The translations under genes were made by a program, and so were the position numbers. Below, one piece after another: positions 7,143-21,878 of a DNA stretch of 64,000 bases (position 1 is the stretch's first letter; each line of letters starts with the position of its first letter). Under the pieces are notes generated by a model. The model searched no databases and had not been told where the DNA came from. It was given only the letters and a program-made list of their open reading frames with translations. This DNA comes from Falsiroseomonas oleicola (GTDB lineage: Bacteria; Pseudomonadota; Alphaproteobacteria; Acetobacterales; Acetobacteraceae): contig NZ_JAERQM010000005.1 of the NCBI RefSeq assembly GCF_019029495.1, positions 248,001-312,000 of the forward strand. The letters are read 5' to 3'.

Positions 7143-7933
7143 GCGGCGGTCTTTCCTTCGCCACGCGTCTCAGCGGCGTCCTGGCGGTGATGCTGCTGCT
7201 GGGCTGCGGCCTGGCGGCGGGGCTGAACTACCTGAAGTTCGAACGCATGCTGCTGGAACAGCAGGCCCGCGTGCTGGAGATCCTGGCCGGTGAGCTGGGC
7301 AGCACGGTGGAGAACAGCCTGGCACTCGGCGTGCGCCTGGCCGGCGTGCCCGGCGCGCAGGCGTTGCTGGAACGCAGCCGTGCGGCGGAGCCGCTGATCG
7401 GCGGGCTGACCATCGCCGATGCCGATGGCGTGGTGCTGTTCGACACCGACCGCCAGAACCTCGGCACCAGCCTGCCACAGCAACGCTTCGAGGCGCTGGC
7501 GCGGCAGGAGGCCTGGCGCTTCCGCATCGGCGCCGATTACGGCATCGGTGCCCCCATCGTGAACGGCTTCGGCCAGCCGGAAGGCGCGGTGCTGCTGCGC
7601 TACGACCGGAGTGCGGTGGACGAACGCCTGGCGGCGGCGCTGCTCGCCATGGTGCAGGCGACGCTGCTGGCGCTCGCCATCGCGGTGCCGCTCGGCGCGC
7701 TGGCGCTGCACCTCGTCACCCGCCGCACCCGTCGCTGGTTCGCGGCGGTGGAGGAAGCGATGCAGCCCGGCGCACCGCCCGCGCCGCTGGCCGCCGGCCT
7801 GCAGGCCGCGATCGGCGAGGCCGATGGCGTGCTGCGCGATGCCGAGGGCCGGCTGGAGGAGATCGCCGCCGAGGTGCCCGAAGAGCTGCCCGAAGGCCCA
7901 CAGACGGAAACCCTGGAAAGGGCCATGACATGA
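7139..7933 (+). CDS. Membrane sensor-like protein with periplasmic domain
   Basis: The 264-residue protein has an N-terminal membrane segment (about 12-30), a periplasmic region of about 150 residues (LEILAGELGSTVENSLALGVRL onward, with DADGVVLFDTDRQNLGTS resembling a single Cache/PAS-like sensor core), a second membrane segment near 178-200 and a short charged cytoplasmic tail. No kinase, cyclase or methyl-accepting domain follows, so by itself it can only sense or recruit. It is joined to its neighbours by ATGA overlaps on both sides. The same N-terminal design recurs in the next gene, which suggests the two form a hetero-oligomeric receptor; this is inference. Confidence 0.7.
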   Translation: MSGGLSFATRLSGVLAVMLLLGCGLAAGLNYLKFERMLLEQQARVLEILAGELGSTVENSLALGVRLAGVPGAQALLERSRAAEPLIGGLTIADADGVVLFDTDRQNLGTSLPQQRFEALARQEAWRFRIGADYGIGAPIVNGFGQPEGAVLLRYDRSAVDERLAAALLAMVQATLLALAIAVPLGALALHLVTRRTRRWFAAVEEAMQPGAPPAPLAAGLQAAIGEADGVLRDAEGRLEEIAAEVPEELPEGPQTETLERAMT

Positions 7934-9981
7934 CCCCGGATCAAAGCCCGGATCAAAGCCCGGATCGCAGCCTGGTCGGCCGTGTCGTCGCGGTGGCCGT
8001 GCTGCTGCTGACGCTCGCCGTCGGCTTCGTCTCCCACAGCGCGCTGCGCAGCTTCGAGCAGGAGCTGCGGCCGGAGCTGGAGCGGGAGGCAACGGTCGTC
8101 GGCAGCATCGGCGTGCAGACCCTGCAACGCGCGCTGGATCTCGGCGTGCCCTTCCACGGGCTGTCGGGGCTGGATGACTACCTGGCCAGCCTGCTCGGCG
8201 CGCGTGAAGGCCTCGCCTATGTGGTGCTGAGCGATGCCGCCGGCCGGGGCGTGGCGACGGCCGGCCAGGTGCCGGCGGCATTCGCGGGCATCGATGCCGG
8301 CAGCGCGGCGCCGGATCGTGGCGCGGTGATGCGCCTTCAGGGCAACAGCTACGACGCCGCGCAGCCCCTGCGGGAAGCGGGGCGCGTGGTCGGCTGGCTG
8401 CATGTCGGCATCGCCCGCGCCCGTGTGGACAGCGCGCTGGATGACATGCGCTGGGACGTGCTGATCGTGCTGCTGGTGGTGTTGCTGGCCACCGCCGAAT
8501 TCCTGCGCTTCATCCTCGCCCGCACCGTCTCCGCCCCCATCGGCATGGTGCTGCGCCTGCAGGGCCGGCTGGCGCAGGGCGACTGGACGCTGCGCGCGCC
8601 GGGTGGCATGGGCGCGGAGGCCGGGCGCGTGGCGCGGCACCTGAACGTGCTGGTGCGCCGCATGAACGATCGCTGGGACCGGCTGTGCTGGCTGGCGACG
8701 CAATCCGGCGCGGCGCGGCGGGCGAACGGGGTGCTGGACGATGTGCGCCAGCGCCTGCGCTTCGGCGTGGCCTCGGTGCAGGAAGGGCTGGGTGCGGGGG
8801 CTTCCTCCGCCCGGCTGCCGCTGTTCCTCTTCGTCTTCGCCGAACAGCTCTCCACCTCCTTCAACCCGATCTATGCGCTGGAACTGGCGGGTGGGCAGGG
8901 TGGCGTGATGGGGGCGGCGCTGCCCATCGTCACCTTCGTCGCCGCCGTCGCGCTGTTCACGCCCTGGGGTGCCGGGGTGGTGGCGCGGCACGGGCCGCGG
9001 GATGCGCTGCTGATCGGCCTGGTGCCGGCGGCGCTCGGCCATGTCGGCGCGGCGCTGGCCACGGACCTGACCACCTTCGCCATCGCGCGCGCCATCTGCG
9101 GCGCGGGCTATGCCATCGTCACCATCGCCTGCCAGGTGCATCTGGCGCAGGAGGCCCCGCGCGGCCGCGTGGCGCGCAGCCTCGGCGGCTTCACCGCGGC
9201 GGTGATGACCGGCGCGGTCTGCGGCACGGCGATCGGTGCGGTGCTGGCGGACCGGGTCGGATTCCGCTTCACCTTTGCCTTCGCCATGCTGCTGGTGGCC
9301 GGCACCGGCCTGCTGGTCTGGCGTGCCTTCGCGGCCGGCGGCAGCAGCGAGCGCAAGGAGATGGGCCTGTGGCGCAGCGCCCGCGCCGCCTTCGCGGAGC
9401 CGCGCTTCGCCCTGCTGGTGATCTTCGCCGCCATTCCGGCGAAGGTGCTGCTCGGCGGCTTCATCTTCTTCCTGGCGCCGCTGGAATTGCGGGAGCTGGG
9501 GCTGAGCCAGGCGGCGATCGGCCGCAATGTGATGCTCTATGGGCTTTGCATGCTGCCGGCGATCCTGGTGGGCGCCTGGCTGGCGGATCGCAGCGGGCGC
9601 GGCGGCCTCATCATCGCCGGCGCCGGCGTGCTGAATGGCGTGGCGCTGCTGCTGCCGCTGTGGATCGACCGTGAAACCGCGCTGCCGCTGGCCATCATCG
9701 GCACCGGCATCGCCCAGGGCCTGGCGGCGGCGCCGATGCTGGCGATCATCCCGGGCCTCAGCCTTCTGCGCAACGCGCCGAGCTCCGCCGCCATGCTGAG
9801 CTTCCTGCGGCTGGCGGAGCGCTTCGGCAGCGTCGTCGGCCCGCCGGCGGCTGCCGCGCTGTTTGCCCTCGGCGGCGGGCAGCACACCATGCTGGTGCTC
9901 GGTGCGCTCTCGCTCGCCACGGCGCTTGGTTATGGGCTGGCATTGGCCTTCGGACGCATTCGCCAGGGAGCAGCGGCATGA
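7930..9981 (+). CDS. Periplasmic sensor/HAMP/major facilitator fusion protein
   Basis: This 683-residue protein has two clear halves. Residues 1-250 look like a receptor: membrane segment 16-36, periplasmic domain with AYVVLSDAAGRGVAT, second membrane segment about 176-196, then a HAMP-like linker (RTVSAPIGMVLRLQGRL onward). From about 297 to the end it is a twelve-helix major facilitator transporter (QLSTSFNPIYALEL, PWGAGVVARHGPRDALL as the loop 2-3 motif, RAICGAGYAIVTIA). The ten N-terminal codons include a short SPDQ/SPDR repeat. Such a fusion would couple ligand sensing to transport or use the transporter itself as a sensor. Start and stop overlap the neighbouring genes (ATGA at both ends), so it is part of the partner-switching operon. 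Confidence 0.8.
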   Translation: MTPDQSPDQSPDRSLVGRVVAVAVLLLTLAVGFVSHSALRSFEQELRPELEREATVVGSIGVQTLQRALDLGVPFHGLSGLDDYLASLLGAREGLAYVVLSDAAGRGVATAGQVPAAFAGIDAGSAAPDRGAVMRLQGNSYDAAQPLREAGRVVGWLHVGIARARVDSALDDMRWDVLIVLLVVLLATAEFLRFILARTVSAPIGMVLRLQGRLAQGDWTLRAPGGMGAEAGRVARHLNVLVRRMNDRWDRLCWLATQSGAARRANGVLDDVRQRLRFGVASVQEGLGAGASSARLPLFLFVFAEQLSTSFNPIYALELAGGQGGVMGAALPIVTFVAAVALFTPWGAGVVARHGPRDALLIGLVPAALGHVGAALATDLTTFAIARAICGAGYAIVTIACQVHLAQEAPRGRVARSLGGFTAAVMTGAVCGTAIGAVLADRVGFRFTFAFAMLLVAGTGLLVWRAFAAGGSSERKEMGLWRSARAAFAEPRFALLVIFAAIPAKVLLGGFIFFLAPLELRELGLSQAAIGRNVMLYGLCMLPAILVGAWLADRSGRGGLIIAGAGVLNGVALLLPLWIDRETALPLAIIGTGIAQGLAAAPMLAIIPGLSLLRNAPSSAAMLSFLRLAERFGSVVGPPAAAALFALGGGQHTMLVLGALSLATALGYGLALAFGRIRQGAAA

Positions 9982-10961
9982 GCATCGCGAGGCGTTCTTT
10001 GCTGGCCACACCAGCCCTGCTGTCGATCCGTCCCGCCAGTGCCCAGGCGCGGCCCTTCCGGATCATGATGCTGCTGTTCCGCGGCTGGGAGGAGGCCTGC
10101 GACGGCTTCCGCGACCACTTCGCCGCGCGCCGCATCCCGGTGGAGCTGATGGTGCGCGACATCGGCCAGGACCTGCGCCGCGTGCCGGCGCTGGTGGAGG
10201 AGGTGCGGCAGATGAAGCCGGACCTCGTCTATGTCTGGGGCACCTCGCTCGCCATGGCCGCGCTCGGGCCGTGGGATGCGGTGGACCCGGCGCGGCACAT
10301 CACCGGCGTCCCGGTGGTGTTCAACATCGTCACCGATCCCGTCGGCAACCGCATCGTGCAGTCGCGGGAGGCGCCGGGGCGACCCGTCACCGGCACCGAA
10401 TACATCGCGCCGGTGGAGGTGCAGATGCGCGCCATGGCGCGCTACCGCCCCTTCACCCGCGTCGCCACCACCTTCAATCCGAATGAGCGCAATTCGCTGT
10501 CCGTCGTGGCCCAGATGAAGACGATGCTCGGCGCGGGCGTCATCGAACTGCCGGTGGCGCTGAACGAGGCGCGGCGGCCCGACCCGGCCTCCATCCCCGG
10601 CATCGTGGAACAGGCGCGGCGAGCCGGCGCGGAATGGCTCTACATCCCGCCCGACACCTTCCTGAACGACCATCGCGTGATCCTGACGCAATCCGCGCTG
10701 GATGTCGGCCTGCCCTGCTTCTCCGCCAGCGAGCGCTTCGTGCAATTCGCCGAGGGCCTCGCCGGTCTGGTCAGCCGCTACTACAGCGTCGGCGCCTTCA
10801 CCGGCTTCAAGGCCGAGCAGATCCTGCGCGGCGGCCGCGCGCCGGAGAGCATTCCGGTGGAGACGCTGACGCGGCTGTCCTTCCTGATCCGGATGGAAAG
10901 CGCGCGGCGCCTGCAATTCTTCCCGCCCGTCGGGCTGCTGCGTGTGGCGGAGGTGGTGTGA
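9978..10961 (+). CDS. ABC transporter substrate-binding protein (orphan)
   Basis: The 327-residue product begins with a signal peptide (RRSLLATPALLSIRPASAQA) and continues as a periplasmic binding protein of the ABC_sub_bind (TrpX-like) family: MLLFRGWEEACDGF, then KPDLVYVWGTSLAMAAL, VVFNIVTDPVGNRIV and GRAPESIPVETLTRL near the end. Members bind small molecules such as amino acids, but the ligand is not predictable here. No ABC permease or ATPase gene lies in this operon; instead it is enclosed by membrane sensors and a PP2C phosphatase. That points to a role as a ligand-presenting sensor subunit rather than in uptake (inference). Start overlaps the upstream stop as ATGA. Confidence 0.82.
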   Translation: MSIARRSLLATPALLSIRPASAQARPFRIMMLLFRGWEEACDGFRDHFAARRIPVELMVRDIGQDLRRVPALVEEVRQMKPDLVYVWGTSLAMAALGPWDAVDPARHITGVPVVFNIVTDPVGNRIVQSREAPGRPVTGTEYIAPVEVQMRAMARYRPFTRVATTFNPNERNSLSVVAQMKTMLGAGVIELPVALNEARRPDPASIPGIVEQARRAGAEWLYIPPDTFLNDHRVILTQSALDVGLPCFSASERFVQFAEGLAGLVSRYYSVGAFTGFKAEQILRGGRAPESIPVETLTRLSFLIRMESARRLQFFPPVGLLRVAEVV

Positions 10962-10963
10962 TC

Positions 10964-13024
10964 ATGCTGCTGCGATCCCGAATCCTTCTGCTGTTCGCCC
11001 TGGCGACCCTGCTGGTCGCCGCTTCCGTCGCGCTGCCGGCCTGGCTGGTGCTGCGCGATGGCGAGGAACGCGCCGCCGGGCTGCGCAACGCGCTCCAGGC
11101 CGCGATGGTGCGGGAGGCGGTGGACCACGCCGCCGCGCCGCTGGTCGCCACGCTGCGCGGTGCCGCCTTGGATGCGACGCTGTTGGCGGCCCGCCAGGCC
11201 GGCGATGAATCGGCCCTGCGCCATCGCCTGGCCGAGTTGCGGCAATCGATCGGCCTGTCCGGCCCGACAGGTCGCATCGACCTGGTGGGCGGGCAGGGCC
11301 AGTTGCTGGCGGCGGCGCCGGCGGCGGCGGAACCCCTGGCCAGCGGCGCCACCGCGCTGCAGCGCGACCTGGCGCCTGGGCAGATCTTCGCGGGCTTCGA
11401 GGCGGAGGTCGAGTCGCCGCTGCTGCTGGTGACCAGCCTGCGGCTGCCGCAGGGCGACCTGCTGTCGGTCAGCATGGCGGCGGAGGCGGCGCTGGGGCAG
11501 ATCGCCGGGCATCTTCGCGCCGATCTCCTGCTGCGGGATCGCGCCGGCGCGCCGCTGTTCAGCACCGCGCCGGAACTGCGTGAGCAGGCGGCGGCGCTGC
11601 GGGCCGGCGAAAGGCTGGAACGCGCCGGCCGGCTGTACCGGCTGGAGGCGACCGTGCTGCTGAATTCGGCCGGCGCGCCGGTGGGCGAACTGCTGGTGCT
11701 GGCCGATGCGACGGCGGAAACGCAATCGCGCAAGCTGCTGCTGCTGGTTGCCTTCGGCCTGCTGGTGCTGGCCGCCGGCGCCATCTGCCGCGCGCTGTAT
11801 CGCGTGATCCGGGACGCTCTCGACCCGCTGACCGAATTGGCGCGCGCGCTGCAATCCGTGGCCGGTGGCGACATCTTCGCCTCCGCCGCCATCGGCCCGC
11901 GCCGCGACGAGGTCGGTGCGATCGGGGAGGCGCTGGAGGCCCTGCGCAGCAACACTTTGGCGCTGGACCGCCTGCAGACCGGCAACCGCCTGGCCGGGCT
12001 GCGTGAACGCGCGCTGATCGCGCAGGAAATCGCGCGGCTGACGGCGGTGCTGGAAGGCCCGGCGCGGCGCGAGATCCTGGGCCTGCTGGAAGGGGAGGGT
12101 GCGACGCTCGGCCCGGCCTTCGCGCGCATGTCCTCCCACGTCGTGCAGCAGCACCGCGCCATGGCGACGCTGCTGGCGGAACGCACCCGCGACCTGGCCC
12201 TGGTGCGCCAGGCGCTGGATGAACGCATGCAGCTCAACCGCATGCGGGAGGAACTGGATGTCGCGCGCCGGCTTCAGCTTTCCTCCGTGCCCACCACCTT
12301 CCCGCAGCTCGACTGCCTGCAACTTCACGCGGCGATGGTGCCGGCGAAGGAGGTCGGCGGCGACTTCTGCGACCTGGTGATGCTGGACGAGCACCGCCTG
12401 GCACTGATGATCGGCGATGCCTCCGGCAAGGGCGTCGGCGCCGCCATCTTCATCGCCATGGCGCGCAGCCTGCTGCGCGCTGCCATGGGCCGTGGCGCGA
12501 CTCCGGCGGAGGCGCTGGCCCAGGCCAATGACATGCTGGCGGCGGACAATCCGACGATGATGTTCGCCACCGCCTTCGTCTCGGTGCTGGATTGCCGCAC
12601 CGGCGTGCTGACCTATGCCAATGCCGGCCACAACGCGCCCCGTCGCCGGGGTGCCAGGGGGCATGAGAGCGAATTGCCCGTGGAAGTCGGCCTCGCGCTC
12701 GGTGTCATGGACGGCATGGATTTCGACGACCAGATCCTGCGCCTCGACGATGGCGACATGGTGCTGATGTTCACCGATGGCGTGACGGAGGCGATGGGTC
12801 CCGGCGATGCGATGTTCGGCGATGCGCGGCTCGCCGCCATCACCGGCGATGCGCGGATCGCCGATCCCGCAAGACTTGTCGATGCCGTGGCGCGCAGTGT
12901 CGAGGCCTTCGCCGAGACCGAGCCGCAGGCGGATGACATCACGATGCTGGCGCTGCACTGGCGCGGACATGCGACGGCGGCACCCGCCCCGGCGCGCGAG
13001 AAGGAGGATGCGACATGGATGTGA
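10964..13024 (+). CDS. SpoIIE-type PP2C phosphatase with membrane sensor (RsbU-like)
   Basis: The product (686 residues) has a membrane segment at about 5-28, a periplasmic sensor of about 220 residues, a second membrane segment near 256-278, a HAMP region, a helical linker, and a C-terminal PP2C domain from about 428. The phosphatase metal sites are present: VGGDFCDLV, MIGDASGKGVGAAIF, YANAGHNAP, MFTDGVTEA and QADDITMLAL. Such phosphatases dephosphorylate a STAS antagonist in partner switching. ATG 10964 follows GGAGG at 10949-10953; GTG 10958, which overlaps the previous stop, is an alternative two codons longer. The 3' end overlaps the STAS gene by ten bases, so its direct substrate is most likely that protein. 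Confidence 0.9.
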   Translation: MLLRSRILLLFALATLLVAASVALPAWLVLRDGEERAAGLRNALQAAMVREAVDHAAAPLVATLRGAALDATLLAARQAGDESALRHRLAELRQSIGLSGPTGRIDLVGGQGQLLAAAPAAAEPLASGATALQRDLAPGQIFAGFEAEVESPLLLVTSLRLPQGDLLSVSMAAEAALGQIAGHLRADLLLRDRAGAPLFSTAPELREQAAALRAGERLERAGRLYRLEATVLLNSAGAPVGELLVLADATAETQSRKLLLLVAFGLLVLAAGAICRALYRVIRDALDPLTELARALQSVAGGDIFASAAIGPRRDEVGAIGEALEALRSNTLALDRLQTGNRLAGLRERALIAQEIARLTAVLEGPARREILGLLEGEGATLGPAFARMSSHVVQQHRAMATLLAERTRDLALVRQALDERMQLNRMREELDVARRLQLSSVPTTFPQLDCLQLHAAMVPAKEVGGDFCDLVMLDEHRLALMIGDASGKGVGAAIFIAMARSLLRAAMGRGATPAEALAQANDMLAADNPTMMFATAFVSVLDCRTGVLTYANAGHNAPRRRGARGHESELPVEVGLALGVMDGMDFDDQILRLDDGDMVLMFTDGVTEAMGPGDAMFGDARLAAITGDARIADPARLVDAVARSVEAFAETEPQADDITMLALHWRGHATAAPAPAREKEDATWM

Positions 13025-13350
13025 CGACGGAACAGCACGGCGGGGCGGTGATCCACCGCGTCAGCGGGCGAATCGATACCGGCACCGCCGCCGATGCGGA
13101 ACGCAAGCTGACGGCGGAGGTCCGCCAGGGCGGCCGCGTGGCGATGGACATGTCCCAGGTGGCCTATGTCTCCTCCGCCGGCCTGCGCGTGGTGCTGATG
13201 GCGGCCAAGCTCGCCAAGGCGAATCGCGGCGCGGTGTCGCTGTTCGGCCTGCAGGCCCCGGTGCGGGAGGTCTTCACCATGTCGGGCTTCGACAAGGTGG
13301 TGACGATTCGCGACGACCAGGCCTCGGCACTTGCCGCGGTGGGCGGCTGA
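13015..13350 (+). CDS. STAS-domain anti-sigma factor antagonist (RsbV-like)
   Basis: This 111-residue single-domain protein has the STAS fold: VIHRVSGRIDTGTAADAE, VAMDMSQVAYVSSAGLRVVL, then VSLFGLQAPVREVFTMSGF. The serine pair in YVSSAGLR includes the phosphorylatable serine used in SpoIIAA and RsbV. In partner switching the unphosphorylated form binds the kinase/anti-sigma protein and frees its target. The gene sits between its presumed phosphatase (ten-base overlap) and presumed kinase (start two bases after this stop), the canonical arrangement. Confidence 0.92.
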   Translation: MDVTTEQHGGAVIHRVSGRIDTGTAADAERKLTAEVRQGGRVAMDMSQVAYVSSAGLRVVLMAAKLAKANRGAVSLFGLQAPVREVFTMSGFDKVVTIRDDQASALAAVGG

Positions 13351-13351
13351 G

Positions 13352-13780
13352 ATGATCCGCCTGCATTGCGCCCGCGACCCGGAAGCGGTCGAAGGCGCGC
13401 TGGATGCGATCGAGGCGCATCTGACGGCGGCGGGTGCCGAGGCGGGGGAGGCGATGCAACTGCGCCTGGTGGCGGAGGAGATCGTCACCAATATCGCCCG
13501 CTGCGCCTGGCCACAGGGAATCGAGGCCCGCTTCCAGGTGGAACTCCTCGCCGAGCCGGGGCCGGAGGGGCTGCTGGTGCGGCTGACCACCATCGACGAT
13601 GGCCAACCCTTCGATCCCACCGCGCAGGACATGCCGGATGTGGAGGCGGAGCTGGAGGATCGGGCCATCGGCGGCCTCGGCATGTTCCTGGTGCGGGAGA
13701 TGACGGATGCGCAGATCTATGCGCGCGAGTCGGGCGAGAACCGTTTCCACGTCGAGCGTCTTTTCCGCCGCGCCGACTGA
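13352..13780 (+). CDS. RsbW-like ATP-binding serine kinase / anti-sigma factor
   Basis: The 142-residue protein is a stand-alone HATPase_c domain. The N box is LRLVAEEIVTNIARCAW (Glu and Asn for magnesium), the G1 box is TIDDGQPFDP and the G2 box is GGLGMFLVREM. No histidine phospho-acceptor domain is present, as expected for RsbW/SpoIIAB-type serine kinases that phosphorylate STAS proteins. ATG 13352 is used because the domain starts there; the upstream in-frame codons overlap the STAS gene. It is the last gene of the operon. No sigma factor gene is in the window, so its controlled partner is unknown; proteins of this type also control non-sigma targets. Confidence 0.9.
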   Translation: MIRLHCARDPEAVEGALDAIEAHLTAAGAEAGEAMQLRLVAEEIVTNIARCAWPQGIEARFQVELLAEPGPEGLLVRLTTIDDGQPFDPTAQDMPDVEAELEDRAIGGLGMFLVREMTDAQIYARESGENRFHVERLFRRAD

Positions 13781-14095: not shown

Positions 14096-14164
14096 ATGTC
14101 CCTGATCGAGAAGACCGCCTGGGTCGATCTGGAAGACAACGCCCTCGCCTCCGTCGTTGGCGGC
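14096..14164 (+). other. Double-glycine leader peptide region
   Basis: These 23 codons encode the predicted leader, ending in Gly-Gly at 14159-14164. The spacing Leu-12, Leu-7, Val-4, Gly-2, Gly-1 fits the double-glycine consensus; position -8 is Ala instead of the more common Glu. The cognate C39 peptidase is encoded at 16880, two genes downstream. Confidence 0.7.
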
Positions 14165-15445
14165 AGCGGCTCGACCAATGTGCAGAGTTCGGGTGGCGAG
14201 GATGAGCAGGAGGCGGAGCTGGGTGTTTCCATCTCCGGCCCCACGGTCGCCTCCGGCGGCGTTGGCACCGGCGGCTCCGTCGGCGGCACGACGGAAGTGA
14301 ATGGCGTGACGCTGCAGGCCGGCGCGGCCTGGGGTGCCGGCGCGGGCTATGAGGTGACGATGACCGGCGCCAGCGCCAGCGCGGGCGCCGGCGCCATGGC
14401 CTTCGCCTCCGGCAGCGTGACCGAGGGTGATGTGACCACCACGGTCAGCGTGCAGGCGGGTGCCGGCGTGATGGTGACGGCGGAGGTCGGCGCGACCGGT
14501 GTCAGCTATGGCGGCGTCGCGGGCGTCGGCGGCAGCGTGACCATCTCGGTCGAGACCGAGCACGACCTGGGCAATGGCGTGCAGGCCACCACCACCACCA
14601 CCACGGAAGTGGGCGTGAAGGCTGGTGTCGAGGGCAACGTCACCCTGGGTGCCGAGGGCGTGGGCACCGAGGCCGAGATCATGGCCGGCGCCTATTACTC
14701 CGTCACGGTAGAGGCCTCCGTCGGCGCCGAGGAAGGCTCCGTCACCGGCTCCGTCGGCTATGTCGATCCGGGCTCGGCCGGCGTCGGTGTCGATGTCGGC
14801 GCGGGCTATGAGAATGGCGAGATCACCATCGGCGTGGGCGGCGAGATTTCGCTGCTGGTCGGCGGCGTCAATCTCGGCGTCAGCGGCACGGTCGATGTGA
14901 ACGCGGTGGGCGATGCCGCGACGGAGGGCGCCGAGGCCGCGCAGCAGGCCGCCGAGAAGGCGGCGGCCGAGGCGCAGGAGGCGGCCGAGCGGGTCGAGGC
15001 CGAGGCGCGCGCGGTGGCCGAGAAGGTCGCGGCCGAGGCCCGTGAGGCGGCGGAGCGCGAGGCGGCCGAGCAGGCCGCGGCCGCCGAGAAGGCGGCGATC
15101 GAGGCGAAGGAAGCCGCCGAGAAGGCGGCGGCCGAGGCCCGGGCGGCGGCGGAGAAGGCCGCGGCGGAGGCGAAGGCGGCGGCGGAGAAGCTGGCGGCCG
15201 AACAGGCGGCGGCGGCGGCCAAGGCGGCGGCGGATGCCAAGGCAGCGGCGGAGAAGGCCGCGGCGGAAGCCCGTGCGGCGGCGGAGAGGGCGGCGGCGGA
15301 AGCGCGCGCGGCGGCGGAGAGGGCGGCGTCGGAAGCCCGTGCGGCGGCGGAGAGGGCCGCGGCGGAAGCCCAGGCCGTCGCCGACAAGGCGAAGAACGCG
15401 GCCAAGAGCATCGCCAAGAAGATCAAGAAGAAGTTCCGCTTCTGA
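14096..15445 (+). CDS. Exported 11-residue-repeat protein with double-glycine leader (NHLM system substrate)
   Basis: I do not recognise this 449-residue protein, but its architecture is clear. Residues 1-23 form a double-glycine leader ending VVGG, with Leu at -12, Leu at -7 and Val at -4 as in C39-processed leaders. Residues 24-272 are Gly/Val/Thr/Ser-rich with alternating polar and small residues, suggesting many beta strands. Residues 273-437 are fifteen consecutive 11-residue units (consensus AAAEKAAAEAR). Residues 438-449 form a cationic amphipathic tail (SIAKKIKKKFRF). The protein has no cysteine. GGAAGGAAG precedes the ATG. The exporter genes follow directly after a strong stem-loop. 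It is probably cleaved after Gly23 and exported as 426 residues. Role unknown: matrix or surface protein, membrane-binding stress protein, or large bacteriocin are all possible. Confidence 0.82.
   Translation: MSLIEKTAWVDLEDNALASVVGGSGSTNVQSSGGEDEQEAELGVSISGPTVASGGVGTGGSVGGTTEVNGVTLQAGAAWGAGAGYEVTMTGASASAGAGAMAFASGSVTEGDVTTTVSVQAGAGVMVTAEVGATGVSYGGVAGVGGSVTISVETEHDLGNGVQATTTTTTEVGVKAGVEGNVTLGAEGVGTEAEIMAGAYYSVTVEASVGAEEGSVTGSVGYVDPGSAGVGVDVGAGYENGEITIGVGGEISLLVGGVNLGVSGTVDVNAVGDAATEGAEAAQQAAEKAAAEAQEAAERVEAEARAVAEKVAAEAREAAEREAAEQAAAAEKAAIEAKEAAEKAAAEARAAAEKAAAEAKAAAEKLAAEQAAAAAKAAADAKAAAEKAAAEARAAAERAAAEARAAAERAASEARAAAERAAAEAQAVADKAKNAAKSIAKKIKKKFRF
14912..15406 (+). repeat. Fifteen 33-bp in-frame tandem repeats (11-residue units)
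   Basis: The DNA is an imperfect 33-base minisatellite of 15 units, encoding 11-residue units with Glu at positions 4 and 9, Lys/Arg at 5 and Lys/Arg/Gln at 11, the rest mostly Ala. The register is unbroken from residue 273 to 437. The last units (about 15242-15373) are the most alike, suggesting recent expansion. Eleven-residue periodicity is typical of LEA group 3, apolipoprotein and synuclein-type amphipathic helices, not of heptad coiled coils. Confidence 0.85.
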
Positions 15446-15455
15446 TCGGCCTGCC

Positions 15456-15482
15456 CCGGGATGCGCCCCGCGCGCATCCCGG
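15456..15482 (+). promoter_or_regulatory. Strong 11-bp stem-loop between substrate and exporter genes
   Basis: CCGGGATGCGC (15456-15466) pairs perfectly with GCGCATCCCGG (15472-15482) around a five-base loop. Flanking GATCG (15444-15448, overlapping the stop codon) and CGATC (15484-15488) can extend it. No T run follows. Placed between an abundant-product gene and its exporter genes, it is suited to partial termination or 3'-end protection so that less exporter than substrate is made. Confidence 0.7.
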
Positions 15483-15535
15483 TCGATCCGCAGCACCTGT
15501 GACCTTTCCAATCCGACTTCGAGGGCAGCCTGGCC

Positions 15536-16876
15536 ATGGAATCTCCCGCGCGACCCGTCTATTTCCGCGAGGAGGCCGTCGCCTCCGCCACCTCCGTCAC
15601 GGTCGTCGAGGATGCGCTGGAGGTGGTGCGTCCACCGCTGATGATCCTGTGGTGCGGCCTCGCGGCCCTGGTGGTCGGGCTGCTCGGCTGGTCCGCGACA
15701 ACCGACGTGCCGGTGAAGATCGGCGGGCAGGGCATCCTGCTCGCGGCCGGCGGCCTGACCGACATCGTCTCCGACACCGAGGGCCGCGTGGTCGAGCTGC
15801 TGGTGGCGCCGGGGGATACCGTCACGGCCGGGGCCGTCGTCGCCGTGGTGGACCAGGCGGAGCAGCATCTGCAACTCGCCGCCGCGCAGGGCGAATTGCG
15901 CGATGCCCAGGCTGCGCGGGCGGAGATGGTGCGCTTCCAGGAACGCGACACGGCGGCCGACCTCGCCTGGCGCACCGCGCGCGATGAGGGGCTCGGCCAG
16001 ACCCTGCGCTCGGCGCGGGAACGGCTGCGCCTGATGACGGAACGCGAGCAGGTGGTGCGCGACCTCGCCGCCCGCTCGCTGGCCACGCGCGACCGTGCCA
16101 TCGGCGCGCAGGTGGAGCTGTTCGGCATTCGTGACCAGATCGAGACGGTGCAGAACGACCGCCGCGTGCTCGGCCTGGATGCGATGATGCGCCAGACGCA
16201 GCGGGAACGTGACATGCTGGCCGCCGACCAGCGCGTGGCGGCCGGTGAGCGCGCCGTCTCCACCCTGCAGGACCGCATTCGCCGCATGGGCGCGATCCGC
16301 TCGCCCTTCGAAGGACGCGTGGTGGAGGCGAAGGCCAATGCCGGGCAGGTGGTCAGCCGTGGCGGTCCGCTGCTGACGCTGGTGCGCAGCGATGTGCCGG
16401 GGGCGGAGGCGGGCGGCATCGTCGGCCTGGTCTATGTCGGTGCGCAGGATGGCAAGAAGCTGCAGCCGGGCATGGCGGTGGAGCTTTCCCCCGCCACCGC
16501 CCCGCAGCAGGAATATGGCTATCTGCGCGGCCGCGTGCTGCGGGTGGCGGATACGCCCGCCAGCAGCGCCGGCATGCTGCGCACGCTGCAGAACGACGCG
16601 CTGGTGACGGAATTCCAGCGCCAGCAGCGCACGCTGTTCGAGGTGAACATCGTGCTCGACCGCGACGAGGCCGGCCAACTCGTCTGGTCCGGCGGCAGCG
16701 GCCCGCCCTTCAGCATCGAGGGCGGCACGCCGCTGGCGATGCAGGCGACGGTGCGCAATGTGCGGATGATCGCGCTCGGCCTGCCTGCACTGCAACGCTG
16801 GCTGGGCGAGGATGTGCGCGTCGCGGCGACGCCGCAGCAGACCGTCGCCGCGCCCGTCACCGTGGCGGAGCGCTGA
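15536..16876 (+). CDS. NHLM-type bacteriocin exporter, HlyD/membrane fusion subunit
   Basis: The 446-residue protein has one N-terminal membrane helix (about 34-54, LMILWCGLAALVVGLLGW), a lipoyl/barrel-sandwich half (GGLTDIVSDTEGRVVELLVAPGDTV), a long helical hairpin region with RERLRLMTEREQVVRDLA, and the returning half IRSPFEGRVVEAKANAGQVVSRGGPLLTL. This is the periplasmic adaptor of a type I-like exporter linking the inner-membrane ABC unit to an outer-membrane TolC channel, which must be encoded elsewhere. It follows the repeat protein by 90 bases and precedes the peptidase-ABC gene by three, so it belongs to the same export unit. It matches the adaptor that accompanies NHLP-type precursors. 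Confidence 0.87.
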   Translation: MESPARPVYFREEAVASATSVTVVEDALEVVRPPLMILWCGLAALVVGLLGWSATTDVPVKIGGQGILLAAGGLTDIVSDTEGRVVELLVAPGDTVTAGAVVAVVDQAEQHLQLAAAQGELRDAQAARAEMVRFQERDTAADLAWRTARDEGLGQTLRSARERLRLMTEREQVVRDLAARSLATRDRAIGAQVELFGIRDQIETVQNDRRVLGLDAMMRQTQRERDMLAADQRVAAGERAVSTLQDRIRRMGAIRSPFEGRVVEAKANAGQVVSRGGPLLTLVRSDVPGAEAGGIVGLVYVGAQDGKKLQPGMAVELSPATAPQQEYGYLRGRVLRVADTPASSAGMLRTLQNDALVTEFQRQQRTLFEVNIVLDRDEAGQLVWSGGSGPPFSIEGGTPLAMQATVRNVRMIALGLPALQRWLGEDVRVAATPQQTVAAPVTVAER

Positions 16877-16879
16877 GCC

Positions 16880-19015
16880 ATGCGCACCCCCTCCATCCTG
16901 CAGATCGAGGCGGCGGAATGCGGCGCCGCGGCGCTCGGCATCATCGCCGCCCATCACGGGCTGTGGCTGACGCTGGAGGATCTGCGTTCGCGCTGCGGCG
17001 TGTCGCGTGACGGCAGCAAGGCCCAGCACATCGTCGCCGCGGCGCGGGAGATGGGCTTCGAGGTGCGCGCCGTGCGCGGCGAGCCGGAGGCGCTGGCCAC
17101 CGCGCCCTGCCCCCTGATCCTGCATTGGGGCATGGACCACTTCCTGGTGCTGGAGGGGAAGCGCGGCGGCTACTGGTATCTGAACGACCCGGCGCGCGGC
17201 CGTCGCCGCGTCGATGACCGGGAGCTGCGGCGGCAGTTCAGCGGCATCGTGCTGATGATGAAGCCGAGCCCCGAATTCAAGCCCGGCGGATCGCCGCCGA
17301 GCGCGCTGCGCGGCCTGGCGGACCGGCTGCGCGGCGGACGCAAGGCAGTGCTGCTGGCCTGCGGCGTCAGCGTGATGCTGGCGCTGCCGGGGGTGCTGCA
17401 GCCGTCCTTCCGCCAGGTCTTCATGGACCGCATCCTGACGGCGGGCGTCATCGCCTGGCTCTGGCCGATGGTGCTGGTGATCTTCGGCGTCGGCGTCTTC
17501 GCGGCGCTGCTGACCTGGATGCAGAAGACCATCCAGCACAATCTGGAAACCCGCGTCGCCGTCGCCGGCGGCATCGGCTTCATGGAACGCGTGCTGCGCC
17601 TGCCCATGGCCTTCTACGGCCAGCGCGGGCCGGCCAGCATCGCCGACCGCGTCATGCTGAACGACCGCGTCGCCGGCATCGTCGCGGGCGAGATCGGCGG
17701 CACCATGCTCGCCCTCATCATGGCGGCGGTCTATCTCGCGGTGCTGCTGCTGTTCGACCTGCGGCTCGGCCTGGTGGCGCTGGCGGCGGCGCTGTCGCTG
17801 GCCGCGGCGCTCGGCCTGCTCTCCGCCCGGCTGCGGGAGGATCAGCAGCGGCTGATGAACGAGCAGGGGATGGAGACGGCGGAGGCCAAGCAGGGCCTGC
17901 GCATGATCGAAAGCTACCGCGCCAGCGGCAGCGAGGCGCTGCTGTTCGACCGGCTGACGGCGCGCCACGCCCGCGCGCTGAACCTGCGGCAGTCGCTGAT
18001 GCTGGGCCGCGCCGCGCTGCGGCACCTGCCGGGGCTGGCCACCGCGGTGGCCGCCGCGACCTCGCTGGCCATCGGCGGCGGGCTGGTCATCAATGGGGAG
18101 ATGTCGATCGGCGCGCTGGTCGCCTTCCAGTTCCTGCTGGCGGTGTTCCTGGCGCCGGTCGGGCGGCTGGTGCAGCTTGGCCCGCGCCTGCAGGAAGCCG
18201 GTTCCAGCCTGCGCCTGCTGGACGACACGCTGCGCCATCCGCTGGCCGAGGAATTCTACAAGCCCCCGGCTGCGCCTCGCCTGATCCGCCGCCTGGAAGG
18301 GCGGATCGAGCTGCGGGACGTCAGCTTCGGCCATTCCCGCCGCGCCGCGCCGCTGATCCAGGGCCTGTCCCTGACGGTGGAGGCCGGGGAGCGCGTGGGC
18401 ATCTGCGGCGGCTCCGGCTGCGGCAAGTCCACCCTGGCGCTGCTCGCCGCCGGGCTGCACGAGCCCTGGTCGGGGGAGGTGCTGCTGGATGGCAAGCCGC
18501 TGCGCAACATCCCCCGCGCGGTGCTGCGGCAGAGCGTGCAGGTGGTCGACCAGAACGCCATGCTGTTCACCGGCACGGTGCGCGACAATATCGCGATGTG
18601 GGACCCGACCGTGTCGGAGGAACGGCTGCATGCCGCGGCGCGCGATGCGGCGATCCATGAATTCATCCTGGACCGGCGCGAGGGCTATGCCTTTCCGGTG
18701 ACGGGCGGCGGCGCCAACCTCTCCGGCGGGCAGCGCGCCCGCATCGAGATCGCCCGTGCCCTGGTGCAGGACCCGCGCATCCTGCTGTTCGACGAGGCGA
18801 CGGCGGCGCTGGATGACACGACGGAGGCGGAGCTGCTGTCCAACATCCGTCGCCGTGGCGCCACCATGCTCATCATCGCCCATCGCCTGGCACCGCTGCG
18901 CGATTGCGACCGGGTTGTGGTGATGGAACGCGGCGCCATCGTCGAGATGGGACCGCCGGCGGAGCTGGCGGCACGGCGTGGCGCCTTCGCGAAACTGATG
19001 CTGGCGGAGGCCTGA
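16880..19015 (+). CDS. NHLM-type exporter, C39 peptidase/permease/ATPase subunit
   Basis: The 711-residue protein joins three domains. The N-terminal C39 peptidase has Gln8, Cys14 (QIEAAECGAAAL), His87 (GMDHFLVLEG) and Asp103 (YLNDPARG), so the catalytic set is complete. A six-helix transmembrane domain spans about 150-430. The ATPase has Walker A GGSGCGKST, signature NLSGGQRAR, Walker B ILLFDEAT and the switch histidine IIAHR. Such proteins cut double-glycine leaders and pump the product across the inner membrane. ATG 16880 is three bases after the adaptor stop. The obvious substrate is the repeat protein at 14096, whose leader ends in Gly-Gly. An active peptidase and a matching leader in one locus are strong evidence for function. 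Confidence 0.93.
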   Translation: MRTPSILQIEAAECGAAALGIIAAHHGLWLTLEDLRSRCGVSRDGSKAQHIVAAAREMGFEVRAVRGEPEALATAPCPLILHWGMDHFLVLEGKRGGYWYLNDPARGRRRVDDRELRRQFSGIVLMMKPSPEFKPGGSPPSALRGLADRLRGGRKAVLLACGVSVMLALPGVLQPSFRQVFMDRILTAGVIAWLWPMVLVIFGVGVFAALLTWMQKTIQHNLETRVAVAGGIGFMERVLRLPMAFYGQRGPASIADRVMLNDRVAGIVAGEIGGTMLALIMAAVYLAVLLLFDLRLGLVALAAALSLAAALGLLSARLREDQQRLMNEQGMETAEAKQGLRMIESYRASGSEALLFDRLTARHARALNLRQSLMLGRAALRHLPGLATAVAAATSLAIGGGLVINGEMSIGALVAFQFLLAVFLAPVGRLVQLGPRLQEAGSSLRLLDDTLRHPLAEEFYKPPAAPRLIRRLEGRIELRDVSFGHSRRAAPLIQGLSLTVEAGERVGICGGSGCGKSTLALLAAGLHEPWSGEVLLDGKPLRNIPRAVLRQSVQVVDQNAMLFTGTVRDNIAMWDPTVSEERLHAAARDAAIHEFILDRREGYAFPVTGGGANLSGGQRARIEIARALVQDPRILLFDEATAALDDTTEAELLSNIRRRGATMLIIAHRLAPLRDCDRVVVMERGAIVEMGPPAELAARRGAFAKLMLAEA

Positions 19016-19016
19016 G

Positions 19017-21878
19017 ATGGACGCGTTCGCACTTGCCAGCACGGAGCGCCCGGTCGATGCGCGCTTCCAGCAGCCGCCGCGCAGCCTGGCCGAGCCCGGC
19101 GCCCTCTGGCTGCTGGAAGCCGGGGAGGCGGATATCTTCGCGGCCCAGGGCGGGCTGGATGACAGCGTGGCGCCGGCCGGCCCCTATCTGTTCATCGGCC
19201 GTATCGGCGCCGGCACGCTGGTGCCCGGCCATGGACCGGATCTGGAATGCCTGGTGCTGCGCCCGGCCGCGGGCGCGCGGCTGCGCCGGCTGACGCATCT
19301 CTCCGGCATCGGCGGCGCCCAGGCGCAGGTGGAGGCAATGCAGGCCTGGGCCTCGGCCCTGGCCGGCGGCCTCGGCGCGCGGCTCTGGCGCCCCTCCAAT
19401 ATCGATCGTGTCGCCCGGCCGGGCGTGACGCAGCGCCTCGCCGACCGGCAGTCGGTCACGGCGCGCGGCGTGCCGGTCTGGGTGGAGGTGCCGGAAGGCG
19501 GCGCCATGCTGCTGGGGCTGGAGCCGGTGCAGGGGCTGCTGCCCTTGCCACCGGAGGCCTGGCTTATCGCCGCCGCCGACCTGGAACTGCCGGTGCATGC
19601 GGCGCCACCCGCCGCTTCCCTGCCCGAGGCGATGCAGGGTCTATCGGCCTTCACCGATGCCTGCGTCGCCATGCTGGCCGGGCTGCGCAGCCTGTCCGAG
19701 ATCGACGAGAGCGGGCGGCTGGAACAGCGCGCGCAGCATGATGCGGAGGCGGCGCACCGCACCGCCCAGCTCGCCGCCGACCTGCTCCACGCGCCGCCGC
19801 CCAAGCCGAGCCAGGCCGCCAGCGACTCCGGCCCGGCGGAGCCGCTGTTCCAGACCATGGTGGTGGTCGCCAAGGCCGCCGGCATCCGCCCGCGCATCCA
19901 GCGTCCGACCCGGCTGCGGGAACAGGATATCGACACGCCGCCGACGATGGAGGAAATCGCCCGCGCCTCCGGCCTTCGGCTGCGCCCGGTGGGGCTGCCG
20001 GCGGAATGGTGGAAACGCGACCTCGGCCCGCTGATCGGCCGCGACGCGAAGGGCGAGCCGCTGGCGCTGCTGCCCCGCCCGGGCGGCTATGTGGCGCAAC
20101 CGCCGGATGGCCCCGCGCAACGGCTGGACGAGGCGGCGGCGGAGGCGATCTCCCCGCGTGCCTGGACGATGATCGAGCCGCTGTCCGACATGGCGCTGAC
20201 GCCGGAACAACTGGCGCGCTTCGTGCCGCCGAAGAAGGGCGACCTGTGGCTGGCCTTCGGCGCGGCGCTGCTGGCGGCCTTCCTCGGCCTCGGCATGCCC
20301 ATCGCCATGTCCTTCGCCACCGGGTCGCTGATTCCGGGCGGCAACCGGATCGGGCTGGTGGAGCTGGGCATCGCGCTGGCCTGTGTCGGCGCGGCGAATT
20401 TCGTGGTGCAGATGGCCGGCGACATCGCCAAGCACCGGTTGCAGGCGATGGCGGAGGCGCCGCTGCATGCCGGGCTCTGGGACCGGCTGCTGCGGCTGCC
20501 GATGCCGGTGCTGCGGCGCTTCAACCCCTCCGAACTGTCATCGCGCCTCGGCGTCGCGATGGCGGTGCCGCTGGGGCAGCGCAACTTCCGGCTGGCGGCG
20601 TTGGGCTATGGCACGGCGCTCGCGGCCTCCCTGCTCATGCTGGTGCTGTATCATCCGCTGGGCGCGCTGGTCGCGCTGGGCATCCTGCTGGTCCAGATCG
20701 GCATGGCGGTGGCCGCGGGCATCCTGAAATCCAAGGTGCATGAGACCGGCCAGGCGCTGTCGGGGCAGGCGGACAGCCTGGCGATCGAGGCAGTGGGCGG
20801 CATCGTCAAGCTGCGGCTTTCAGGGGTGGAGCACCGCTTCCTCGCCGCCTGGTCGGAACGCTTCGTCGCCATGCGCCGCACCAAGCTGACGGAGGAGCAT
20901 ATCGACACCTGGCAGGCCTCCGCCGCCAGCTTCATGTCCTTCCTCGGCGTCGGCCTGCTGTTCCTGATGTTCATGGCCGGCGGTTCGGCCGACAATGCGG
21001 CGGTGGCGGGCTTCCTGATGGCCTTCATGATCGCCAATGGCGCCGCCAATGGCCTCGGCCAGGCCTTCGCCGCCTACTACCCGCTGCATGCCATGCGCGG
21101 CTATGGCGCGCCGCTGCTGCAGGCGCAGCCGGAGCCGACGGCGGGGCGCATCGACCCGGGCAAGCTCTCCGGCCACATCTCCATGAGCAATGTCGCCTTC
21201 GGCTATGAGGGGTCGGAGGGGCCGCTGTTCTCCGGCCTGAACCTGCAGATCGAGCCGGGCGAGTTCGTCGCCATCGTCGGCCGCTCCGGCTGCGGCAAGT
21301 CGACGCTGGTGCGGCTGCTGCTGGGGCTGGAGCGTCCGGTCTATGGCAGTGTCGCCTTCGACCGGCAGGACCTGGTCTCGCTCGACCTCGGCCTGCTGCG
21401 GCGGCGCGTCGGCACGGTGATGCAGGGCGCGCAACTGCCGCCCGGCGCGCTGATCGACGTGCTGCGCGGCTTCAGCGAGGCCAGCGAGGCCGCGATCTGG
21501 AAGGCGCTGGAACAGGCGGCGATCGCCCAGGATGTGCGCGCCATGCCGCTCGGCATCCGCACGCCCATCGCCGATGCGGCGCATGTGCTCTCGGGCGGGC
21601 AGGTGCAGCGGCTGCTGCTGGCCCGGGCGCTGGTGAACCGGCCGGATGTGCTGATCCTGGATGAGGCGACCAGCGCGCTGGACCCGGCGACCCAGGCCAT
21701 CACCACCCGCACCCTGGCGGCACTGACCTGCACCCGCATCGTCATCGCGCACCGGCTGGAGACGATCCGCGGCGCCGACCGCATCCTGGTGATCGAGGGC
21801 GGCAAGGTCGCGCATCAGGGCAGTTTTGCCGAACTGTCCAAGCGCGGGATCATCGGGCATGCGGGGGAGGTGGCGTAG
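19017..21878 (+). CDS. NHLM-type exporter, second permease/ATPase subunit
   Basis: This 953-residue ABC protein has an unusually long N-terminal cytoplasmic part of about 400 residues. It includes a cyclic-nucleotide-domain-like start and a degenerate peptidase-like segment near 310-370 (TMEEIARASGLRLRPV onward) without a catalytic Cys/His pair. A six-helix membrane domain follows from about 408, then the ATPase from about 720: Walker A GRSGCGKST (near 755), VLSGGQVQRLLLARAL, VLILDEATSALD and IAHRLE. This layout is characteristic of the second NHLM-type ABC subunit, which works as a heterodimer with the peptidase-bearing one. The start is one base after the preceding stop. The gene ends against a palindrome and the convergent thioesterase gene. 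Confidence 0.9.
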   Translation: MDAFALASTERPVDARFQQPPRSLAEPGALWLLEAGEADIFAAQGGLDDSVAPAGPYLFIGRIGAGTLVPGHGPDLECLVLRPAAGARLRRLTHLSGIGGAQAQVEAMQAWASALAGGLGARLWRPSNIDRVARPGVTQRLADRQSVTARGVPVWVEVPEGGAMLLGLEPVQGLLPLPPEAWLIAAADLELPVHAAPPAASLPEAMQGLSAFTDACVAMLAGLRSLSEIDESGRLEQRAQHDAEAAHRTAQLAADLLHAPPPKPSQAASDSGPAEPLFQTMVVVAKAAGIRPRIQRPTRLREQDIDTPPTMEEIARASGLRLRPVGLPAEWWKRDLGPLIGRDAKGEPLALLPRPGGYVAQPPDGPAQRLDEAAAEAISPRAWTMIEPLSDMALTPEQLARFVPPKKGDLWLAFGAALLAAFLGLGMPIAMSFATGSLIPGGNRIGLVELGIALACVGAANFVVQMAGDIAKHRLQAMAEAPLHAGLWDRLLRLPMPVLRRFNPSELSSRLGVAMAVPLGQRNFRLAALGYGTALAASLLMLVLYHPLGALVALGILLVQIGMAVAAGILKSKVHETGQALSGQADSLAIEAVGGIVKLRLSGVEHRFLAAWSERFVAMRRTKLTEEHIDTWQASAASFMSFLGVGLLFLMFMAGGSADNAAVAGFLMAFMIANGAANGLGQAFAAYYPLHAMRGYGAPLLQAQPEPTAGRIDPGKLSGHISMSNVAFGYEGSEGPLFSGLNLQIEPGEFVAIVGRSGCGKSTLVRLLLGLERPVYGSVAFDRQDLVSLDLGLLRRRVGTVMQGAQLPPGALIDVLRGFSEASEAAIWKALEQAAIAQDVRAMPLGIRTPIADAAHVLSGGQVQRLLLARALVNRPDVLILDEATSALDPATQAITTRTLAALTCTRIVIAHRLETIRGADRILVIEGGKVAHQGSFAELSKRGIIGHAGEVA

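What the first reader, a model, noticed from the sequence alone, without database searches (positions are those of the whole stretch)
14096..21878. NHLM-type C39 export machine paired with a 449-residue repeat protein rather than a small bacteriocin
Seen: a protein with a 23-residue double-glycine leader, immediately followed by adaptor, peptidase-ABC with complete Cys14/His87/Asp103, and the second ABC subunit with its long N-terminal region. Known: these three-part machines normally export peptide natural products with nitrile-hydratase-like or similar leaders. Here the only candidate substrate is a large Cys-free protein with beta and 11-residue-repeat domains. Inference: a peptidase-dependent secretion route for a surface or matrix protein, or a very large bacteriocin.
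Basis: partly seen in the sequence, partly recalled or inferred. Interest (0 to 1): 0.9.

Follow-up and report, generated by a model that had tools for sequence, protein, structure and literature searches.

The report
Peptide exporter dedicated to large proteins
A secretion machine of a type known for trimming and exporting small antibiotic-like peptides is paired, in a group of related bacteria, with a protein several times larger, which suggests that this kind of machine can also deliver large surface or matrix proteins.

Summary
Window 14096-15445 encodes a Cys-free 449-aa protein: double-glycine leader, probable amphipathic beta-meander, 11-residue-repeat helix, basic tail. It stands directly upstream of an NHLM-type HlyD / C39-ABC / ABC trio. 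Orthologues (370-419 aa) hold the same place in all six relatives found with this exporter clade; another genus has two tandem copies before a diverged trio. In 59 genomes the protein occurs in 8: the 7 with this clade and that one. Five of the seven have a second copy elsewhere.

The leader helix is the best conserved part (84% identity). The protein is under purifying selection (dN/dS 0.22) and no further gene was called inside the cassette, so a surface or matrix role seems likelier than a giant bacteriocin. A second NHLM exporter in the same genome belongs to a clade that co-occurs (5 of 5 against 0 of 54 genomes, cut-off chosen after the search) with RTX proteins bearing double-glycine leaders.

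A review passage says active C39 exporters carry cargo up to ~10 kDa and that RTX cargo goes with inactive C39-like domains. Both rules appear broken here. Export and cleavage remain untested. The exporter is a known kind; its cargo is a new variant.

The parts
14096..15445 (+). GG-leader large cargo protein, 449 aa (mature 426 aa, 40.5 kDa, pI 4.5, no Cys)
   Evidence: no Pfam family
14096..14164 (+). 23-residue double-glycine leader (Leu -12, Leu -7, Val -4, Gly -2, Gly -1)
   Evidence: residues 12-25 84% identical among 7 orthologues; residues 1-25 dN/dS 0.06 in four close species
14243..14884 (+). probable beta-meander region, residues 50-263; strands of ~20 residues, one hydrophobic face
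   Evidence: low-confidence AF2 models; period-2.1 hydropathy
14927..15433 (+). Ala/Glu/Lys helix of 11-residue repeats, residues 278-446; its length varies between species
15386..15442 (+). basic C-terminal tail ending KKIKKKFRF (RRLFR, KKAFGF, KKAFHI and similar in relatives)
15457..15481 (+). strong hairpin between cargo stop codon and hlyD, no U-run; similar hairpin in 6 of 7 loci
15536..16876 (+). HlyD-type adaptor, NHLM_micro_HlyD (TIGR03794, 224 bits, cut-off 156)
16880..19015 (+). C39 peptidase-ABC transporter (NHLM ABC1-like); C39 domain residues 3-131 with Cys14/His87/Asp103
19017..21878 (+). second ABC subunit without peptidase (NHLM ABC2-like) with ~275-aa N-terminal extension
7930..9981 (+). 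upstream neighbour: sCache-MFS fusion (HAMP match below cut-off); kept in all 7 clade-1 loci and G011; not shown to belong to the cassette
9978..10961 (+). upstream neighbour: ABC_sub_bind protein; kept in all 7 clade-1 loci and G011
10964..13024 (+). upstream neighbour: HAMP-SpoIIE phosphatase; kept in all 7 clade-1 loci and in G011, which lacks cargo and exporter
13015..13350 (+). upstream neighbour: STAS protein; kept in 3 of 7 clade-1 loci (window, G001, G010) and G011
13352..13780 (+). upstream neighbour: HATPase_c_2 (RsbW-like) kinase; kept in 5 of 7 clade-1 loci (not G005, G013) and G011

Best explanation
This is a dedicated peptidase-dependent type I secretion cassette for a large protein. 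The C39 domain docks the amphipathic leader helix (Leu -12, Leu -7, Val -4) and cuts after Gly23. The ABC1/ABC2/HlyD machine, presumably with a TolC-type channel encoded elsewhere (not searched for), exports the 426-residue, Cys-free, low-complexity chain unfolded. Outside, the amphipathic beta-meander folds or self-assembles while the 11-residue-repeat helix and basic tail extend from it and bind polyanions or the cell surface, making a surface-layer, adhesive or matrix protein. Shown by sequence and comparison: the architecture, the conserved pairing, the co-occurrence, the leader conservation and the intact triad. Inferred: cleavage, export, assembly and the surface or matrix role.
For: Cargo orthologues stand directly 5' of hlyD in 6 of 6 relatives with a close adaptor. 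In 59 genomes cargo occurs in 8: the 7 with clade-1 HlyD, plus G019, whose own NHLM trio (ABC1 38-39% identical) follows two tandem cargo genes. Second copies elsewhere in 5 of the 7 genus genomes; the three inspected (576, 495, 491 aa) keep leader and basic tail and have no NHLM exporter beside them. Leader residues 12-25 84% identical between flanks at 45% and 50%. One orthologue's leader matches Pfam ComC, recalled as a GG-leader family, just under its cut-off (18.5 against 20.4 bits, 1 of the 9 proteins scanned there; the window protein has no such match). Triad in 15 of 15 ABC1s aligned. C39 domain closest to PDB 6mpz, a double-glycine-motif protease domain (128 bits); that this is the LahT150 of PMC6363468 (passages) is recalled. 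dN/dS 0.22, leader 0.06. No further gene called between cargo and ABC2 in 7 of 7 loci. Cys-free in 11 of 11 relatives counted. Hairpin after the cargo gene in 6 of 7 loci.
Against: No secretion or cleavage data. A review passage gives ~10 kDa as the upper limit for active C39 exporters (PMC8277102), and microcin V export dropped sharply at 116 aa (PMC10231218, passages). Two of three exporter subunits score below the curated NHLM cut-offs. AF2 models are poor (pLDDT 48 and 45), so the fold and hence the surface role are weak. The cargo family is narrow: 6 of 397 genomes of the family, 2 of 102 genera (where at most 6 candidates per genome were scored). Position -8, Glu in the quoted consensus, is Ala here. 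The seven linked loci are from one genus, so they are not independent.
Confidence: 0.65

Rival explanations
1. A very large bacteriocin or pore-former: the GG leader and C39 exporter release a 40-kDa beta-barrel-like protein that inserts into the envelopes of competing bacteria.
For: Exporter type and leader are those of bacteriocins. Beta strands of ~20 residues with one hydrophobic face, and a basic tail.
Against: No further gene, hence no immunity candidate, called between cargo and ABC2 in 7 of 7 loci (a home-made caller with a 30-aa floor could miss a tiny gene). dN/dS 0.22 (beta region 0.25) without diversification among four close species. Repeat-length variation as in structural proteins. 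All models low confidence.
Confidence: 0.15
2. The 449-aa protein is exported by the machine but stays with the producing cell as an outer-membrane or periplasmic component instead of a released matrix protein, much as proposed for the MAM protein of Faecalibacterium.
For: Amphipathic beta signal; MAM precedent for a PCAT-linked envelope protein (PMC12184118, passages).
Confidence: 0.3
3. The true cargo is a short peptide elsewhere and the large protein is a chance neighbour.
For: A 62-aa GG-leader ORF exists at G000:C25:367395. Short GG ORFs accompany 5 of 10 NHLM loci inspected in other Pseudomonadota.
Against: Large cargo beside the exporter in 7 of 7 clade-1 loci and beside the distant G019 exporter; leader more conserved than its flanks. 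The 62-aa ORF's leader scores 17.8 bits against 54.5.
Confidence: 0.05
4. The upstream SpoIIE (STAS/HATPase) genes are part of the same system and sense the exported protein or control its dose.
For: A close SpoIIE relative is present in all 7 clade-1 genomes and in only 1 of the 23 other genomes searched.
Against: G011 keeps the genes without cargo or exporter there. STAS is missing in 4 of 7 and HATPase in 2 of 7 clade-1 loci, which keep cargo and exporter. The confidence was lowered from 0.3 after that check.
Confidence: 0.15

Closest known systems
NHLM exporters (TIGR03794/03796/03797) of NHLP and Nif11 natural-product precursors (Haft 2010, PMC2887384)
   Same: three-gene trio, C39 peptidase, GG-leader cargo, cargo gene beside the trio
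   Different: leader is 23 residues and not NHLP or Nif11; no modification enzyme in the cassette; mature cargo is 426 aa; two subunits below curated cut-offs
Class II microcin / colicin V PCAT systems (CvaAB)
   Same: C39-ABC plus HlyD adaptor, GG leader
   Different: second ABC subunit present; cargo about five times longer than microcin V (88 aa, PMC10231218)
PteB-EbfG system of Synechococcus elongatus (PMC4997328)
   Same: C39 exporter serving GG-leader proteins for biofilm, not killing
   Different: EbfG are small proteins; exporter and cargo sequences were not compared here
MAM/PCAT of Faecalibacterium (PMC12184118)
   Same: GG-leader protein beside a PCAT, abundant in the envelope; strict co-occurrence reported
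   Different: 12.1 kDa mature protein, another lineage; sequences and folds not compared here
HlyB-type T1SS for RTX proteins
   Same: large proteins through a type I machine
   Different: HlyB has an inactive C39-like domain and HlyA is not cleaved at an N-terminal leader (PMC8277102, passages); here the C39 triad is intact and the signal is an N-terminal leader

Membership tests
Peptidase-containing ABC exporter (PCAT/AMS) | C39 domain with Cys, His, Asp fused to ABC transporter | tested here: met
Peptidase-containing ABC exporter (PCAT/AMS) | substrate leader with GG and hydrophobic -4, -7, -12 | tested here: met
   -8 is Ala, not Glu
Peptidase-containing ABC exporter (PCAT/AMS) | cleavage after GG coupled to export | not testable with these tools
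   needs protein work
NHLM exporter trio | adaptor over TIGR03794 cut-off | tested here: met
   224.3 against 156.2 bits
NHLM exporter trio | ABC1 over TIGR03796 cut-off | tested here: not met
   807 against 853 bits; best-scoring family by far; the genome's other copy passes with 901
NHLM exporter trio | ABC2 over TIGR03797 cut-off | tested here: not met
   555 against 709 bits
NHLP/Nif11 RiPP precursor | match to TIGR03793 or TIGR03798 leader | tested here: not met
   no NCBIfam leader match for the 449-aa protein; positive control L054 matches TIGR03793 with 75 bits
RiPP cluster | modification enzyme beside precursor | tested here: not met
   no gene called between cargo and ABC2 in 7 loci; flanking genes judged by Pfam for the window's upstream side only
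Bacteriocin | immunity gene and killing activity | tested here: inconclusive
   no immunity candidate seen; killing not testable
RTX protein | HemolysinCabind repeats | tested here: not met
   window protein has no Pfam match; met in three of three RTX candidates scanned

The most novel reading that the evidence does not exclude
Active C39 (NHLM-type) exporters in Acetobacteraceae form a general N-terminal-leader route for large proteins: one exporter clade serves beta/11-residue-repeat proteins of about 32-53 kDa, a second serves a set of RTX proteins of about 17-30 kDa with cleavable GG leaders. This breaks both the ~10 kDa limit and the stated link between RTX cargo and inactive C39-like domains.
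Probability: 0.7. Interest if true: 0.78.

Novelty: new variant of a known kind. Interest (0 to 1): 0.66.

Why it matters
C39 exporters are treated as machines for small peptides (PMC8277102, passage). If they also carry 40-kDa proteins and RTX proteins under a cleavable leader of about 16-25 residues, then a class of extracellular proteins has been overlooked, and a short removable tag for exporting large proteins from Gram-negative bacteria becomes testable. What sets the size limit of type I machines could be studied with two natural exporter clades from one genome.

Tried and rejected
Short-precursor alternative: the leader profile A4 against the own genome gave seven matches at E <= 10: the two beta proteins (54.5 and 53.5 bits), a 167-aa GG protein (19.8), a 62-aa GG ORF (17.8), and three weaker ones (15.9, 11.3, 10.8) that I printed but did not pursue.

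Fold: two AF2 jobs gave mean pLDDT 48 and 45; no fold search was run because such a model gives meaningless matches. A profile search of solved structures gave only two weak matches to CD276 (E about 0.045). No plasmid record matched.

Wide search: the class-level search found, in 385 genomes, the own genome and one partial match in G541 (E 1.7e-7, profile 165-269, 4-kb contig), not followed. The first collection scan with one protein found nothing; the second, with A2, gave 7 loci.

RTX leader count, told in full. Rule 1: 15 of 16 top hits from clade-2-exporter genomes carry a leader, and 0 of 20 RTX frames from other genomes; the 16th (L100) has one by eye beyond the rule's reach. The query itself carried a leader, so the top hits are biased. 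A second, stricter rule on all sets gave 13 of 16 top hits, 8 of 16 weaker hits from the same genomes and 3 of 20 controls. By eye it missed 3 leaders with Pro in the top set and 1 in the weaker set, and the 3 control hits lie in or beside RTX repeats and do not look like leaders. So, rule plus eye, 25 of 32 against 0 of 20; the eye saw only the first 60-70 residues of frames without a rule hit. Seven of the 16 weaker hits in clade-2 genomes have no leader seen. The control set mixes genomes with clade 1, with other NHLM trios and with none. One fetched control region (L124) was a filler and not used. The frames were chosen by me from the listed hits by short length, not drawn at random.

Partner-switch genes as part of the system: kept only as a weak rival because G011 has them without the cassette and two cargo loci lack both STAS and HATPase.

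In print: nine library searches showed me no paper on an active C39 or NHLM exporter with a 40-kDa cargo or with GG-leader RTX proteins; I saw listings, and passages of nine papers only, and the library lacks most subscription journals.
Full report
WHAT IS THERE. The window lies in a 5.6-Mb genome (G000, contig C26). Named relatives that hold the locus are Falsiroseomonas stagni, F. algicola and Roseomonas ponticola, besides three MAGs, so it is taken as a Falsiroseomonas-like member of the Acetobacteraceae (inference). Window 14096-15445 encodes a 449-aa Cys-free protein. It has a 23-residue leader ending VVGG, a Gly/Val/Thr-rich region and a long Ala/Glu/Lys helix, and it ends KKIKKKFRF. The mature part is 426 aa, 40.5 kDa, pI 4.5. 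It has no Pfam family and only weak low-complexity NCBIfam matches. Ninety bases downstream begins a tightly packed trio. The HlyD adaptor passes the NHLM model TIGR03794. The C39-ABC has TIGR03796 as best model but lies under its cut-off, and the second ABC has TIGR03797, also under its cut-off.

ANATOMY OF THE CARGO. The helix has a clean 11-residue period (autocorrelation at lag 11: 0.57, 0.73 and 0.66 for hydrophobic, basic and acidic residues). The region before it shows a strong period-2.1 hydropathy signal (86.8 against a shuffled 95% limit of 26.5, on a profile averaged over seven orthologues). Of 11 predicted strands, 6 show an even/odd hydropathy contrast at p < 0.05 and 5 do not. 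AF2 draws strands of about 20 residues in a meander followed by one long helix, but with mean pLDDT of only 48 and 45. I take 'amphipathic beta-meander' as likely and any named fold as unknown.

PAIRING OF CARGO AND EXPORTER. Six other genomes of the genus hold an adaptor 77-85% identical to the window's. In all six the gene directly 5' of it is an orthologue of the cargo, 370-419 aa, mature mass 32.5-37.3 kDa. G019, of another genus, has two tandem copies (422 and 421 aa) directly before its own NHLM-like trio, although that trio's ABC1 is only 38-39% identical and lies far away on the tree. A search of 59 relatives with the cargo profile found it in 8 genomes: the seven with clade-1 adaptors and G019. 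Among 397 genomes of the family it occurs in 6 (G005 and G013 were evidently not in that draw). Five of the seven genus genomes have a second copy elsewhere. The three inspected copies (576, 495, 491 aa) have leader and tail and no NHLM exporter beside them, so the exporter would serve them in trans (inference). All 11 relatives counted lack Cys.

THE LEADER IS THE CONSERVED PART. Mean pairwise identity over seven orthologues is 45% in residues 1-11, 84% in 12-25, 50% in 26-45, 67% in the beta region, 71% in the helix and 64% in the tail. Among four close species dN/dS is 0.06 for the leader (25 codons), 0.25 for the beta region and 0.22 for the whole protein, against 0.12-0.23 for the exporter genes. 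Leu -12, Leu -7, Val -4 and GG fit the docking motif described for PCAT cargo (PMC8277102, passages), apart from Ala at -8. The catalytic Cys, His and Asp are present in 15 of 15 aligned ABC1s. The C39 domain is closest to PDB 6mpz, a double-glycine-motif protease domain (128 bits); PMC6363468 (passages) describes such an active domain.

EXPRESSION. A stable hairpin without a U-run follows the cargo stop codon in 6 of 7 loci, with differing stem sequence (z-scores from -0.4 to -2.4, and +0.3 in the seventh, which lacks it). It may protect or over-supply the cargo part of a shared transcript (inference). Upstream lie an sCache-MFS fusion, an ABC_sub_bind protein and a HAMP-SpoIIE phosphatase, kept in all 7 clade-1 loci and in G011. 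A STAS protein is kept in 3 of 7 and a HATPase_c_2 kinase in 5 of 7. G011 has these five genes without cargo or exporter there. The cassette is therefore cargo plus trio; control by the neighbours is possible but weakly supported.

A SECOND EXPORTER WITH LARGE CARGO. The own genome holds one more NHLM ABC1 (C25, 901 bits, over the cut-off). Its clade occurs in G000, G002, G007, G012 and G017 among the 59. In G017 and G012 an RTX protein of 208 and 217 aa with a GG leader lies beside it, and in G007 one of up to 349 aa; in G000 and G002 none was seen beside it. Searching 59 genomes with the G017 protein gave matches under E 1e-50 in exactly these 5 genomes and in 0 of 54 others (cut-off set after seeing the result; the best of the others is 6.7e-20). 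HemolysinCabind repeats are confirmed in the three scanned. Leaders, by rule and eye: 25 of 32 fetched RTX frames from clade-2 genomes, 0 of 20 from other genomes (rule-based counts and bias are told under Tried and rejected). So two exporter clades of one genome each seem to have their own large-protein family. Related genomes are not independent, so the co-occurrence is not a probability.

CONTROLS. A classical system is found in the same genus: G013:C66 has a 115-aa NHLP precursor (TIGR03793, 75 bits) and a large enzyme that looks like LanM by eye (no family scan) beside its own trio. A TIGR03796 search of 398 genomes of the phylum listed 12 places outside the own genome. I fetched 10 (two partial matches left out). 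Five of 10 had short GG ORFs (56-140 aa), one had a 220-aa helical GG protein, and in four the rule found none or only a doubtful frame; of these four, one has no C39 part in the match and one has Ser in place of the catalytic Cys by eye. Short cargo is thus the more usual state in this small sample, and the window's clade departs from it.

KNOWN OR NEW. Haft et al. defined the trio by its link with NHLP/Nif11 precursors (PMC2887384, passages). A review states that active C39 exporters carry cargo up to about 10 kDa and that RTX cargo correlates with inactive C39-like domains (PMC8277102, passage). Microcin V export dropped at 116 aa (PMC10231218, passages). Non-antibiotic roles have precedents: EbfG proteins and PteB in biofilm (PMC4997328, passages) and the 12-kDa MAM envelope protein with its PCAT (PMC12184118, passages). 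Nothing seen in nine searches reports a 40-kDa cargo or GG-leader RTX proteins for an active C39 exporter; the library is open-access only. I rate it a new variant of a known kind: a known exporter type with a new cargo class.

MECHANISM AND LIMITS. Most likely the leader is docked and cut by the C39 domain and the unfolded chain passes through the ABC1/ABC2-HlyD channel to fold or assemble outside. Lack of Cys, low complexity and an all-helix tail suit threading (inference). Surface or matrix function is favoured over killing because of purifying selection, repeat-length variation and absence of a called immunity gene, but rests on inference. No step of cleavage or export has been shown.

Noticed in passing
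G000:C26:312375-312962 (L091), 375 bases beyond the window end; also C26:75724 (L089), C26:125905 (L090), C25:246886 (L103), C29:219080 (L104): Five RTX proteins of the own genome with GG leaders, scattered: candidate cargo of the second NHLM exporter at C25:520871-527240. A sixth RTX frame looked at (C27:277753, L154) has no leader.
   Followed up: partly
L141 1839-2501 (G555) and L127 1066-1566 (G000:C26:418291): Two GG-leader proteins of 220 and 167 aa, helical by eye, both ending in NMR, the first beside an NHLM trio: perhaps a third class of mid-sized cargo.
   Followed up: no
L128 1378-1563 (G000:C25:367395): 62-aa ORF with GG leader (PLDDEALTEVVGG), a short-precursor candidate without family match.
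   Followed up: partly
L054 4335-16482 (G013:C66): Classical NHLP precursor, LanM-like enzyme by eye, further enzyme and own NHLM trio in the same genus: a probable lanthipeptide cluster.
   Followed up: partly
L140 8956-11220 (G425): An NHLM ABC1 over the family cut-off whose C39 motif reads HESGAAALG: Ser in place of the catalytic Cys, by eye, and no GG-leader ORF found nearby by rule.
   Followed up: no
window 15457-15481 and same place in L043-L047: Strong hairpin between cargo gene and hlyD, structure kept while stem sequence changes; absent in L042.
   Followed up: partly
window 7930-9981: MFS transporter fused to an N-terminal sCache sensor, next to an ABC_sub_bind protein and a SpoIIE phosphatase: an unusual sensor architecture kept in 8 genomes.
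   Followed up: partly
L053 8570-10025 (G029): 82-aa acidic GG-leader ORF followed by a 361-aa protein not scanned for family, before an NHLM trio: possible unknown RiPP cluster.
   Followed up: no
window 19017-19850: The ~275-aa N-terminal extension of the second ABC subunit has no Pfam match; by length it is also present in the other clade-1 trios.
   Followed up: no
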